Source: Brucella grignonensis
GTDB taxonomy: Bacteria > Pseudomonadota > Alphaproteobacteria > Rhizobiales > Rhizobiaceae
NCBI RefSeq assembly: GCF_002252505.1
Contig: NZ_NNRL01000161.1
Coordinates: forward strand, 62,001-126,000
Reading direction: 5' to 3'
Length of the DNA: 64,000 nt
Within the stretch, counting starts at the first letter, position 1. The number at the start of each line of letters is the position of its first letter. Position numbers and translations under genes: made by a program. Shown here in pieces: positions 52,735 through 63,011 of the stretch. The notes beneath the pieces were generated by a model, which was given only the letters and a program-made list of their open reading frames with translations, did not search any database and was not told the origin of the DNA.

Positions 52735-53175
52735 ATGAACCCCGATATTCAAGTCGCCAACGGCGCCTGCCACTGCAGAACGGTACGCTTTCGCGTCAAA
52801 CTTTCCGATGGCCTTAACACGGCGCGGCGCTGCACCTGCTCTTATTGCCGGATGCGCGGAGCAGTCGCTGTTTCCGCCGATCTTGATGGGCTCGAAGTGC
52901 TTGAAGGGAAAGACGCGCTGACGCTCTACACATTCAATACTGGTGCAGCGAAGCACTATTTCTGCTCGAAATGCGGGATCTACACCTTCCATCAGCGCCG
53001 CTCCAATCCACGCCAGTTTGGCGTGAATGCCGCCTGCCTTGAAGATATTTCCCCCTTTGACTTCAAGGTTATTCCCGTCAATGACGGCGTGAACCACCCC
53101 TCCGACAATCCGAACTACAAAGGTTCGGGCATTGCGGGCTATCTGCGTTTTGAGCCCGTTGTGGAAGAGGATTAA
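52735..53175 (+). CDS. GFA family (glutathione-dependent formaldehyde-activating enzyme-like) protein
   Basis: A 146-residue zinc-fold protein. Metal Cys pairs are at GACHCRTV (about residues 11-13), CTCSYC (about 32-37) and FCSKCG (about 80-83). The family includes Gfa and many proteins not acting on formaldehyde, so the function is unassigned. AGAGGAGG lies just before the chosen ATG 52735; the frame is open upstream to 52675. It ends overlapping the stop of the convergent GMC gene by 4 bases. Confidence 0.87.
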   Translation: MNPDIQVANGACHCRTVRFRVKLSDGLNTARRCTCSYCRMRGAVAVSADLDGLEVLEGKDALTLYTFNTGAAKHYFCSKCGIYTFHQRRSNPRQFGVNAACLEDISPFDFKVIPVNDGVNHPSDNPNYKGSGIAGYLRFEPVVEED

Positions 53176-54809
53176 TTCCTCGCCCGCCGCTTATGTTCGT
53201 TCTTCTCCCATGAAAACAGAACCGGCGGCAGTGGATCGCGCCCGCGAATAATATCCGCACCCTTTTCGCCGATCATGATGGTCGGCGCATTGGTGTTACA
53301 CGATGGAACGCGCGGCATAATCGAGCTGTCGCAAACCCGCAAGCCTTCGAGCCCCCGCACTTTCAGATCAAGATCGACAACGGCCCTCGCATCGGTTCCC
53401 ATCTTGCAAGTGCCGACCGGATGATGATCGGTCTTGGCATTGGCACAGGCATAATCGAACAGATCGTCGTCACTGACGACCTTCGGTCCCGGCAGACGTT
53501 CCGCCATGACATAGGGTTTTAAGGCATTCTGCTGCATGATTTCGCGCGCGATCTTCAAACCCTCAAGAGACATTTTGCGATCATGCGGATCGCTCCAGTA
53601 ATTGGGGTCGATCAGCGGTGCCGCAGCCGGGTCGCTGGATGCCAGCCGCACGGTTCCGCGCGAGCGCGGATGCAGATAGGCGGAGTTGAGCGTCACGCCT
53701 GCATTTTTGAGCTTCTCGACACCTGCCTCGATGCCCGAACCAAGCCCCAGATGGAACTGAATATCCGGCGAACGCGCATCCGGGTCAGCATACCAGAAAC
53801 CGCCGGTTTCAAAGAGGCTCGATGCCACCGGACCGGAGCGCAGCAGAATATATTGCAGCCCCGCGCCCAGTGTCCGGTGCAGCTTTGCCACGCCATCATA
53901 GGTGTGATCGCCCGTGCATTCGGCAATGACAAAGAGATCAAGATGATCCTGCAAGTTCTCGCCCACACCCGGCAGATCATGTTTCACATTGACGCCGAGT
54001 TTTTTGAGATGATCGGCGGGGCCGATGCCCGATTGCAGCAGGAGTTTCGGCGAGCCGATGGCGCCGGAAGAGACAATCACCTCGCGGTTTGCGCGCAAGA
54101 CCTCACCGCTCATCAGCGTTACCCCGGTTACGCGGGTCTTTTCCAGCTCGATGTTGCGTACCGGCGCATTCATGCGCACGCTCAGATTCTTGCGAGCCCT
54201 GATCGGCGCGAGATAAGCGAGCGATGCCGACGAGCGGCCGCGATTGCGCTGGGTGAGCTGATAAAAGCCAACGCCCGCCTGTTCGCGACCGTTGAAATCC
54301 GGATTGTATGGAATGCCGAGTTCTTGACCCGCGCGGATATAGGCGTCGCAGATCGGCAGTGGTGCGGATGGCATCGAAACGCCAAGCGGCCCGCCATAGG
54401 AATGAAAATCATCGTTGAAACGCTGGTTGTCTTCGGCGCGTTTGAAATAGGGCAGCACATGGCGATAGTCCCAGCCGGTGCAGCCGTCTTCGCCAGCCCA
54501 GAGATCATAATCGGCTGCATTGCCGCGCGTATAAATCTGGGCATTGATCGAGGAGCCGCCGCCAATGACTTTCGCCTGCGTATAGCGCAACACACGGTTT
54601 TTGAGATGCTTCTGCGGAACGGTTTCCCACCCCCAGCTCGCCACGCCCTTCGTCATTTTGGCAAAACCGGCAGGCATGTGAAACAGCGGGTTCCAGTCGC
54701 TGCCGCCTGCCTCCAGCAGCAGCACTTTTATCGAAGCATCTTCGCTCAGACGATTGGCAAGAACACAACCGGCAGGCCCGCCACCCACGATGATATAATC
54801 GTAATCCAT
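53172..54809 (-). CDS. GMC family oxidoreductase (choline dehydrogenase-like)
   Basis: A 545-residue FAD-dependent alcohol dehydrogenase or oxidase. FAD-binding VGGGPAGCVLANRL at the start (about 8-21), GMC signature 1 around KVIGGGSSINAQIYTRG (about 80), signature 2 GAIGSPKLLLQSGIGP (about 250), and the C-terminal catalytic His in TDHHPVGTCKMG with Asn in NTNAPTIMIGEKGAD. The choline/alkanol (BetA/AlkJ) branch is a reasonable guess; substrate unknown. Last gene of the LacI-headed cluster, 10 bases after the preceding SDR. I take the ATG at 54809; a GTG lies one codon upstream. Confidence 0.9.
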   Translation of the reverse strand: MDYDYIIVGGGPAGCVLANRLSEDASIKVLLLEAGGSDWNPLFHMPAGFAKMTKGVASWGWETVPQKHLKNRVLRYTQAKVIGGGSSINAQIYTRGNAADYDLWAGEDGCTGWDYRHVLPYFKRAEDNQRFNDDFHSYGGPLGVSMPSAPLPICDAYIRAGQELGIPYNPDFNGREQAGVGFYQLTQRNRGRSSASLAYLAPIRARKNLSVRMNAPVRNIELEKTRVTGVTLMSGEVLRANREVIVSSGAIGSPKLLLQSGIGPADHLKKLGVNVKHDLPGVGENLQDHLDLFVIAECTGDHTYDGVAKLHRTLGAGLQYILLRSGPVASSLFETGGFWYADPDARSPDIQFHLGLGSGIEAGVEKLKNAGVTLNSAYLHPRSRGTVRLASSDPAAAPLIDPNYWSDPHDRKMSLEGLKIAREIMQQNALKPYVMAERLPGPKVVSDDDLFDYACANAKTDHHPVGTCKMGTDARAVVDLDLKVRGLEGLRVCDSSIMPRVPSCNTNAPTIMIGEKGADIIRGRDPLPPVLFSWEKNEHKRRARN

Positions 54810-61977: not shown

Positions 61978-63011
61978 GCGAATTTCTCCTCATTTTTGAA
62001 CGGCGCACCACAACTTGCACGCACCGCAAGACGCACCGACAAGCGCTGCGCCTCCGCCTCCACCCGTTCTGAATTGATCTGTTTCAGCAAAAGCTGCGCC
62101 GCACGTTCTCCCAAACCTTGCGGATCGACAGCCACAGTTGTCAGTGCCGGAACAGCGGTCTTTGCTTCGATCACATCGTCAAAACCAACCACTCCGAAAT
62201 CCCGGCCCGGCTCCAGATTTGCAGCGCGCAAACCATCGCAGACCCCAAAAGCCACAGCATCATTGAAACACACCGCTGCCGTTGGCTTCATGCCTTGCCG
62301 CAGCATGCGCTCAACTGCTTCAACACCGCCAGCACGCGAAGGCGCAGAGGTGAAGACCAGCGCATCATCAAACACGATGTCCGCCTGCTCAAGCCCCGCA
62401 CGATAGCCCGCAACTCTCTCAGCAAAAACAGCGGTATCCGCATAGCCGCCCATGAAAGCGATTACGCGATGCCCTAGCGACACCAGATGCTCAATCGCCT
62501 TTGCCACGCCGCCGCGGTTATCCGAAACGATGGAAGAAACGCCCGATCCCGGCACATCACGCACCATCTGCACAACCGGCAGGCCACTTTTTGCCAGCGG
62601 TTTCAGATCATTAGCCTCGGTTCCACGCGCTGGCGAAACGATCAGCCCGGCAATGCCATGTTCACGCATCGAGGCAATCACCTCACGCTGACGGTCAATA
62701 CTTTCCGCCGTGTTGGCTAGAAACTGCACATAACCTGCCGATTGCATGACGCGATCAACACCAACGGCAAGCTCGGCAAAGAAGCTGTTGGTCAGATCAT
62801 TGACCACAAGGCCGATGATCTTTGATTTCGCCTGACGGAGATTGGCAGCCGAGCGATTATAAACATAACCGAGTTTCTCGATTGCCTCCTGCACCTTGGC
62901 CCGGGTTTCGGCATGAACAAGCGGACTGTCACGGAGCACAAGCGAGACGGTCGATTTCGACACGCCTGCTTCGCGTGCAATATCGATGACCGTAATGCTG
63001 CTCTTGTTCAT
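61956..63011 (-). CDS. LacI family transcriptional regulator
   Basis: A 351-residue regulator. N-terminal helix-turn-helix (about 5-27: TVIDIAREAGVSKSTVSLVLR) with the LacI hinge (KVQEAIEKLGYVYNRSAANLR), then a periplasmic-binding-like domain (about 60-340) for a sugar-type ligand. It heads the minus-strand cluster and shares an intergenic region with the DUF993 gene. Operators TTGGAACGTTCCAA are found inside its own promoter and, degenerate, in the divergent one, so it most likely represses both until inducer binds. The effector is unknown. Confidence 0.95.
   Translation of the reverse strand: MNKSSITVIDIAREAGVSKSTVSLVLRDSPLVHAETRAKVQEAIEKLGYVYNRSAANLRQAKSKIIGLVVNDLTNSFFAELAVGVDRVMQSAGYVQFLANTAESIDRQREVIASMREHGIAGLIVSPARGTEANDLKPLAKSGLPVVQMVRDVPGSGVSSIVSDNRGGVAKAIEHLVSLGHRVIAFMGGYADTAVFAERVAGYRAGLEQADIVFDDALVFTSAPSRAGGVEAVERMLRQGMKPTAAVCFNDAVAFGVCDGLRAANLEPGRDFGVVGFDDVIEAKTAVPALTTVAVDPQGLGERAAQLLLKQINSERVEAEAQRLSVRLAVRASCGAPFKNEEKFAWQSGAL

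What the first reader, a model, noticed from the sequence alone, without database searches (positions are those of the whole stretch)
53172..63011. Candidate undescribed catabolic pathway: GMC, ALDH, CoA-transferase, crotonase, SDR and Gfo/Idh
The genes are packed with 1-22-base overlaps or gaps up to 10 bases on one strand. The enzyme types order into a logical route: alcohol to aldehyde (GMC), aldehyde to acid (ALDH), acid to CoA ester (fused CoA-transferase), hydration (crotonase), oxidation (SDR), plus Gfo/Idh and an aldolase-like DUF993. No acyl-CoA dehydrogenase or thiolase is present, so standard beta-oxidation is not explained and the substrate may already be unsaturated or oxidised. 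I know of no characterised pathway with this exact set.
Basis: partly seen in the sequence, partly recalled or inferred. Interest (0 to 1): 0.7.

Follow-up and report, generated by a model that had tools for sequence, protein, structure and literature searches.

The report
Probable 1,5-anhydro-sugar breakdown operon
A conserved, jointly controlled set of genes in soil bacteria related to rhizobia contains the known enzyme that reduces 1,5-anhydrofructose, and probably breaks down such very stable ring sugars in air by a coenzyme-A route that has not been described.

Summary
The operon is real and the coordinates are right: eight same-strand genes (two GMC, SDR, ALDH, crotonase, fused CoA-transferase, Gfo/Idh, LacI) plus divergent DUF993, in an Ochrobactrum-type Brucella. 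The Gfo/Idh is an orthologue of the characterised 1,5-anhydro-D-fructose reductase AFR (PDB 2glx): 75% identical here, 94% in Ensifer copies of the same operon. The order is conserved in Rhizobiaceae and beyond. There the operon usually also holds a sugar ABC transporter, whose binding protein is 86% identical to one crystallised with glucose. A 14-bp palindrome between LacI and DUF993, in 59 of 59 loci holding both, puts DUF993 in the same regulon. In print, AFR's product anhydromannitol goes to mannose by an unidentified P450-like enzyme; the operon has none. I propose instead: oxidation at C6, CoA ester, dehydration by the crotonase to a vinyl ether, ring opening by hydration to 2-keto-3-deoxy-D-gluconate, and cleavage, perhaps by DapA-fold DUF993. 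Of five sugar configurations tested, only AFR's manno product fits both crotonase stereochemistry and this end product. The substrate class is likely (about 0.75); the CoA route is inference (about 0.35).

The parts
53172..54812 (-). GMC1, FAD-dependent GMC dehydrogenase, 546 aa, choline-dehydrogenase-like; proposed to oxidise the sugar alcohol (C2 of 1,5-anhydroglucitol or C6-OH)
   Evidence: Pfam GMC_oxred_N/C; PDB best 9lq0; a passage of a table names S. meliloti SMc04390, which I take to be its counterpart, L-sorbose dehydrogenase
54820..55584 (-). SDR (NCBIfam PRK12745 over its cut-off), 254 aa from the ATG at 55584; role unassigned
55581..57074 (-). GMC2, 497 aa, distant relative of FAD glucose and fructose dehydrogenase large subunits
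   Evidence: PDB best 6a2u, 132 bits
57078..58598 (-). aldehyde dehydrogenase, 506 aa
   Evidence: Pfam Aldedh; below every NCBIfam equivalog cut-off shown
58592..59368 (-). crotonase-fold hydratase/dehydratase, 258 aa; both catalytic-Glu motifs kept, unusual Trp142
59369..60979 (-). fused family I CoA-transferase of YdiF type, 536 aa
   Evidence: PDB 2ahu YdiF, 383 bits; Pfam CoA_trans
60976..61977 (-). 1,5-anhydro-D-fructose reductase (AFR) orthologue, Gfo/Idh/MocA family, 333 aa
   Evidence: PDB 2glx 562.9 bits, 4koa 544.3, next family member 109.3; 248 of 331 residues identical to 2glx
61956..63011 (-). LacI-family regulator, 351 aa
63038..63051 (.). operator-like perfect palindrome TTGGAACGTTCCAA upstream of the LacI/AFR operon
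   Evidence: the only exact copy in the genome
63233..63246 (.). second, degenerate operator copy TTGGAACGATCTAA (2 mismatches) upstream of DUF993
63280..64000 (+). DUF993 (PF06187), DHDPS/DapA-like TIM barrel, candidate aldolase; continues beyond the window
   Evidence: Pfam; structure comparison of a 95%-identical relative; Lys234 in 73 of 73

Best explanation
The genes form one LacI-controlled regulon for aerobic catabolism of 1,5-anhydro-hexitols (1,5-anhydrofructose AF, and probably 1,5-anhydroglucitol AG). Proposed steps. (1) A GMC enzyme oxidises AG at C2 to AF [inferred]. (2) AFR reduces AF to 1,5-anhydro-D-mannitol (AM) [activity reported for the 94%-identical Ensifer-type enzyme; orthology shown here]. 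(3) A GMC dehydrogenase plus the ALDH oxidise C6 to the anhydro-hexonic acid [inferred]. (4) The CoA-transferase makes its CoA thioester [inferred]. (5) The crotonase removes the C4 hydroxyl, giving a cyclic vinyl ether alpha to the thioester [inferred]. (6) Hydration of the vinyl ether gives a hemiketal that opens to 2-keto-3-deoxy-D-gluconyl-CoA; the catalyst of this step is unknown [inferred]. (7) The CoA-transferase passes CoA to the next acid and frees KDG [inferred]. (8) DUF993, or KDG kinase and KDPG aldolase, yields pyruvate and D-glyceraldehyde or its phosphate; glycerate kinase, next to the operon in some relatives, takes up glycerate [inferred]. This explains why no acyl-CoA dehydrogenase or thiolase is needed and why AFR makes the manno isomer.
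For: AFR orthology (75%; 94% to copies in the same operon of Ensifer-type genomes). Conserved order across 80 loci. AFR and CoA-T co-occur in 9 of 121 genomes with 13 and 11 carriers, Fisher p 3e-9, 2e-8 without the own genome, relatedness not corrected; adjacent in 9 of 9. Operator between LacI and DUF993 in 59 of 59 loci, two copies in 58; 154 of 156 hits in 1.66 Mb lie upstream of LacI, about 5 expected. Transporter inside the operon in 54 of 80 loci by its binding protein; that protein is 86% identical to O. anthropi Oant_3817 crystallised with glucose; AG is 1-deoxyglucose. Crotonase: best PDB match is a dehydratase, 3-hydroxypropionyl-CoA dehydratase; Glu motifs in 86 of 86. DUF993 has the DapA fold and an invariant Lys. 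Stereochemistry: with C6 as the acyl carbon, the C4-OH of gluco and manno rings is 3S-like, cis to H5 and gives a trans-enoyl ring alkene, as crotonase demands; only manno also gives D-erythro KDG.
Against: A 2025 review, citing the 2006 AFR paper, reports that AM goes to D-mannose by C1 hydroxylation with an unidentified P450-like enzyme; 9 of 10 genomes with this operon that I checked do have a P450 somewhere, 1 of 10 has none. No enzyme except AFR was tested on such substrates. 11 of 80 loci lack AFR beside the CoA-T, so the core may serve another entry substrate. AFR occurs without the CoA-T in 2 of 11 genomes and CoA-T without AFR in 4 of 13. The vinyl-ether hydration has no assigned enzyme; SDR has no assigned role. 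DUF993's Lys was matched to the Schiff-base Lys by motif and strand only; a profile alignment failed, and the usual catalytic Tyr is not evident. Glycerate kinase follows GMC1 in only 3 of 14 loci seen that far and a KDG-kinase-like gene lies near in 1. In the own genome the transporter and glycerate kinase genes lack the operator.
Confidence: 0.45

Rival explanations
1. The published route: AFR makes anhydromannitol, which a separate P450-like oxygenase hydroxylates at C1 to give D-mannose; the rest of the operon does something else or handles side products.
For: Review section read in full; a P450 exists in the own genome (C66:339950-341140) and in 9 of 10 operon-bearing genomes.
Against: No oxygenase gene in the operon; the P450 of the own genome lies on another contig; one operon-bearing genome (G230) has no P450 match. 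It leaves seven tightly conserved, co-regulated genes unexplained.
Confidence: 0.2
2. Same substrates, other ring opening: GMC2 or the SDR makes a 3-keto sugar, so that the ring oxygen is eliminated from the beta position, as in 3-keto-glycoside pathways; CoA-transferase and crotonase act on the opened acid.
For: GMC2 is distantly related to sugar-oxidising FAD dehydrogenases; the SDR and second GMC have no assigned step in the main model.
Against: Needs a less direct path to known central intermediates; no 3-keto-glycoside hydrolase-type gene among the eight genes.
Confidence: 0.15
3. A different pyranose-like substrate (for example an osone, a glucoside acid or another deoxy sugar); AFR reduces its 2-keto form.
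For: AFR is reported to reduce 2-keto aldoses too (recalled from the 2006 abstract, not seen). A passage says the S. meliloti binding-protein gene smc04396, which I take to be of this operon, is induced by dextrin. Loci without AFR keep the core.
Against: The AFR copies of Ensifer-type loci are 94% identical to an enzyme from a strain isolated on AF.
Confidence: 0.15
4. Ordinary short-chain acid or alcohol catabolism with an incidental Gfo/Idh.
For: CoA-T, crotonase, ALDH and SDR are general families; none of the NCBIfam equivalog cut-offs shown is reached except PRK12745 for the SDR.
Against: Strict adjacency and co-occurrence with AFR, sugar ABC transporter, LacI regulator.
Confidence: 0.05

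Closest known systems
1,5-anhydro-D-fructose degradation of Sinorhizobium morelense (AF to anhydromannitol to D-mannose)
   Same: Same first enzyme, AFR; same bacterial group; aerobic
   Different: Published second step is an unidentified P450-like hydroxylation; here a co-regulated set of GMC, ALDH, CoA-transferase, crotonase, SDR and DUF993 is proposed to do the rest
Anaerobic 1,5-anhydroglucitol-6-phosphate pathway of gut bacteria (YbiW/PflD glycyl radical enzymes; review section)
   Same: Opens the same stable ring
   Different: Phosphorylated substrates, radical enzyme, oxygen-sensitive; no such gene here
3,6-anhydro-L-galactose pathway of agar degraders (recalled)
   Same: Anhydro-sugar oxidised by an ALDH to the acid, then opened to a 2-keto-3-deoxy acid
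   Different: Uses a cycloisomerase, no CoA, other ring
Unsaturated uronate catabolism (vinyl-ether hydration by unsaturated glucuronyl hydrolases, then KduI/KduD; recalled)
   Same: Hydration of a 4,5-vinyl ether next to a carboxyl opens a pyranose towards KDG
   Different: There a polysaccharide lyase makes the alkene; here a crotonase would, on a CoA ester
Sister clusters with CoA-T, crotonase, GMC, ALDH and glycerate kinase (L085, L091, L096), with DUF993 in L091, L096 and L108
   Same: Same core enzyme types; CoA-T 66-71% identical to the window's or its relatives'
   Different: No AFR beside it; L085 and L091 add an acyl-CoA dehydrogenase; other transporters and regulators

Membership tests
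1,5-anhydro-D-fructose reductase (AFR) | Orthologous to characterised AFR of S. morelense (2glx), far above other Gfo/Idh proteins | tested here: met
   562.9 bits versus 109.3 for the next family; 75% identity; 94% for operon copies in L041, L049, L053
1,5-anhydro-D-fructose reductase (AFR) | NADPH-dependent reduction of AF to anhydromannitol | not testable with these tools
   needs enzyme assay
Published AF-to-mannose pathway | C1-hydroxylating P450-like enzyme with the reductase | tested here: inconclusive
   None in the operon; a P450 elsewhere in 9 of 10 operon genomes, none in G230; the published enzyme is unidentified
Crotonase superfamily, hydratase/dehydratase type | Two catalytic glutamates in GGGLELA and LPE motifs | tested here: met
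   both motifs in 86 of 86 proteins; Glu113 and Glu133 invariant in 20 of 20; that these are the catalytic pair is recalled
Family I CoA-transferase, YdiF type | Fused subunits and catalytic Glu motif | tested here: met
   YdiF over its length; IEQGA[VI]GG in 83 of 86; that this Glu is catalytic is recalled
DHDPS/NAL aldolase superfamily (DUF993) | DapA-like TIM barrel | tested here: met
DHDPS/NAL aldolase superfamily (DUF993) | Schiff-base lysine and catalytic tyrosine in register | tested here: inconclusive
   Lys234 (GIK motif, predicted strand 230-236) in 73 of 73; profile alignment to DHDPS failed; usual Tyr not evident
LacI regulon | Conserved palindromic operator before the regulated units | tested here: met
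   59 of 59 loci with both genes; binding not tested

The most novel reading that the evidence does not exclude
A previously undescribed aerobic pathway opens the ether ring of 1,5-anhydro-hexitols through CoA-ester chemistry: a crotonase makes a cyclic vinyl ether from an anhydro-hexonyl-CoA, which hydrates to 2-keto-3-deoxy-D-gluconate, and DUF993 is the aldolase. It would extend crotonases to carbohydrate rings and give the aerobic 1,5-anhydroglucitol pathway that a 2025 review says has not been described.
Probability: 0.35. Interest if true: 0.8.

Novelty: new variant of a known kind. Interest (0 to 1): 0.6.

Why it matters
1,5-Anhydroglucitol is the precursor of the toxic phosphate behind the neutropenia of glycogen storage disease Ib and G6PC3 deficiency. 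The review read here says that lowering it with gut bacteria would need an aerobic enzyme system and that an aerobic oxidative pathway for it has not been described. This operon is a concrete, testable candidate. It would also give a function to DUF993, for which no paper was found under that name, and extend CoA and crotonase chemistry to opening sugar ether rings.

Tried and rejected
Considered and rejected: standard beta-oxidation or short-chain acid catabolism (no dehydrogenase or thiolase; sugar regulator and AFR).

Led nowhere or weak: profile alignment of DUF993 with three DHDPS proteins of the same genome (probability 0.04). Search for papers on DUF993 (0), on anhydroglucitol with sorbose dehydrogenase (0), on 4R2B with Ochrobactrum and glucose (0). 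The 2006 AFR paper is not held; what I say of its abstract is recalled, or from the review. The paper search for anhydro sugars together with CoA-transferase or enoyl-CoA hydratase listed 12 of 76 papers; the 12 shown hold neither anhydroglucitol nor anhydrofructose. Promoter scan between LacI and DUF993 gave only weak hexamers. The P450 test did not separate the rivals clearly. A glycerate kinase beside the operon was looked for in 14 loci and seen in 3; it is not a general feature.

Recalled, from no call: that locus tags SMc04390 to SMc04401 of S. meliloti 1021 are this operon (papers seen support the labels of SMc04390, 04391, 04392, 04396 and 04401 only); that a Sinorhizobium L-sorbose dehydrogenase oxidises anhydroglucitol; that E. 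coli YagE is a KDG aldolase; crotonase stereochemistry (3S, syn, trans).
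Full report
What is there. The window is contig C64, 62001-126000, of a 4.83 Mb genome. Its CoA-transferase is 97% identical to Brucella sp. 21LCYQ03, B. cytisi and B. pituitosa, so it is an Ochrobactrum-type member of Brucella. On the minus strand, in order of transcription: LacI regulator, Gfo/Idh, CoA-transferase, crotonase, ALDH, GMC2, SDR, GMC1, with gaps of at most 10 bases and overlaps of up to 22. DUF993 is divergent across 268 bases; its start at 63280 follows a GGAGG.

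Identity of the Gfo/Idh. Its best PDB matches are two entries named 1,5-anhydro-D-fructose reductase, 2glx (562.9 bits) and 4koa (544.3); the next is at 109.3. Identity to 2glx is 248 of 331. Of 74 AFR proteins translated from the loci, those of L041, L049 (Sinorhizobium sp. A49) and L053 (Ensifer adhaerens) are 94% identical to 2glx, and all three lie in this operon. So the characterised enzyme belongs to this operon type.

Conservation. With tblastn of the window's genes and the S. meliloti transporter, tallies over the 80 loci at 45% identity or more are: CoA-T 80, crotonase 80, LacI 79, ALDH 79, GMC2 72, AFR 69, DUF993 59, SBP 54, SDR 54, permeases 53 and 52, ATPase 52, GMC1 41 (loci end 10 kb after the CoA-T or at contig ends, which cuts SDR and GMC1 off in many). 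The 17 loci L004-L020 (Brucella, Ochrobactrum and a few unnamed Rhizobiales isolates) all have AFR and DUF993 and none has the transporter inside; of the 63 others, 42 have AFR, DUF993 and SBP, 5 AFR and SBP, 5 AFR only, 7 SBP without AFR and DUF993, 4 none of the three. Annotated records show the same order in S. meliloti pSymB, Microvirga ossetica and Rhizobium sp. ACO-34A.

Wider samples. Of 121 genomes of the order, 13 have the CoA-T (E up to 1e-150) and 11 AFR (E up to 1e-100); 9 have both, adjacent in 9 of 9. Fisher p is 3e-9, or 2e-8 without the own genome, with relatedness not corrected. Of 190 genomes of the class, 3 have AFR, 5 CoA-T, 2 both. Fetched regions show the full operon in other families, in L103-L105 with DUF993 and LacI in line at its end.

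Regulon. Between LacI and DUF993 lie a perfect palindrome TTGGAACGTTCCAA (63038-63051) and a copy with two mismatches (63233-63246). Allowing two mismatches, all 59 loci with both genes have a site between them and 58 have two; 154 of 156 hits in 1.66 Mb lie upstream of LacI, against about 5 expected with equal base frequencies. In the own genome the exact palindrome occurs only here; with two mismatches 16 sites, against 10 for the reversed control. No site was found in L086 (Microvirga), nor in the own genome's stand-alone transporter and glycerate kinase regions L113-L115.

What is in print. A 2025 review (PMC12441222; section 5.1 read in full; [quoted passage not shown] Passages of PMC12542648, PMC4960864, PMC4560400 and PMC12323652 name, respectively, SMc04390-04392 as L-sorbose dehydrogenase, SDR and dehydrogenase; smc04396 as induced by dextrin; SMc04401 as a regulator; and 1,5-anhydrofructose degradation as a named pathway.

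Mechanism. Seven genes besides the reductase and regulator need a role. Counting from C6 as the acyl carbon, the C4-OH is the beta-hydroxyl. For gluco, manno and allo rings it is 3S-like and cis to H5, and its syn loss gives a ring alkene of trans-enoyl geometry; galacto and talo fail. Of the five, only manno also gives D-erythro 2-keto-3-deoxy-hexonate, that is KDG, after hydration and opening (a bookkeeping script, not chemistry software). This would explain why AFR reduces AF to the manno isomer. The fit is suggestive, not proof: the script tests my own scheme.

Downstream. Glycerate kinase follows GMC1 in L084, L088 and L090, 3 of 14 loci seen that far. In Rhizobium sp. CCGE531 (L089) a gene near GMC1 matches a KDG kinase model at 249.9 bits, below its cut-off of 400, with KDG kinase 4e69 the best PDB match.

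Verdict. Operon and regulon: shown by sequence. Substrate class 1,5-anhydro-hexitol: likely, about 0.75. CoA-vinyl-ether route to KDG: about 0.35. Against it stands the published mannose route and that no step but AFR has been assayed.

Noticed in passing
L085, L091, L096, L108: Sister clusters with the same CoA-T and crotonase types; glycerate kinase in L085, L091, L096; DUF993 and a sugar-isomerase-like gene in L091, L096, L108; an acyl-CoA dehydrogenase in L085 and L091; ETF genes in L091. Probably a related pathway for another sugar.
   Followed up: partly
L089:2867-8259: Beside GMC1 in Rhizobium sp. CCGE531: levoglucosan-dehydrogenase-like Gfo/Idh, SdhA-like flavoprotein, KDG-kinase-like sugar kinase, class I fructose bisphosphate aldolase.
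   Followed up: partly
G000:C50:149698-150915 (L113): In the window's genome the operon's ABC transporter stands alone on another contig and lacks the LacI operator, as if moved out of the operon and regulon.
   Followed up: yes
L026, L033, L073, L074: Rhizobium loci with the core and operator but without AFR and DUF993 beside LacI; binding protein of a second subtype, about 62% identical to that of S. meliloti. They may have another entry substrate.
   Followed up: partly
L090:18271-19897: The CoA-transferase of Rhizobium sp. SL42 reads as two overlapping ORFs with no annotated gene; described only.
   Followed up: no
window 51870-52646 and 52675-53172: SDR of glucose-dehydrogenase type (minus strand) and a GFA-family protein (plus strand) just beyond GMC1; the SDR is also found beside the operon in 16 of the 17 loci L004-L020.
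   Followed up: no
L003:1549-16180: Beyond DUF993: a luciferase-like monooxygenase, a small ABC transporter with a DAO-type oxidoreductase, then genes that read as parB, parA, rsmG, mnmG and mnmE, so the operon may lie near a replication origin (the names parB to mnmE are my reading of the translations).
   Followed up: no
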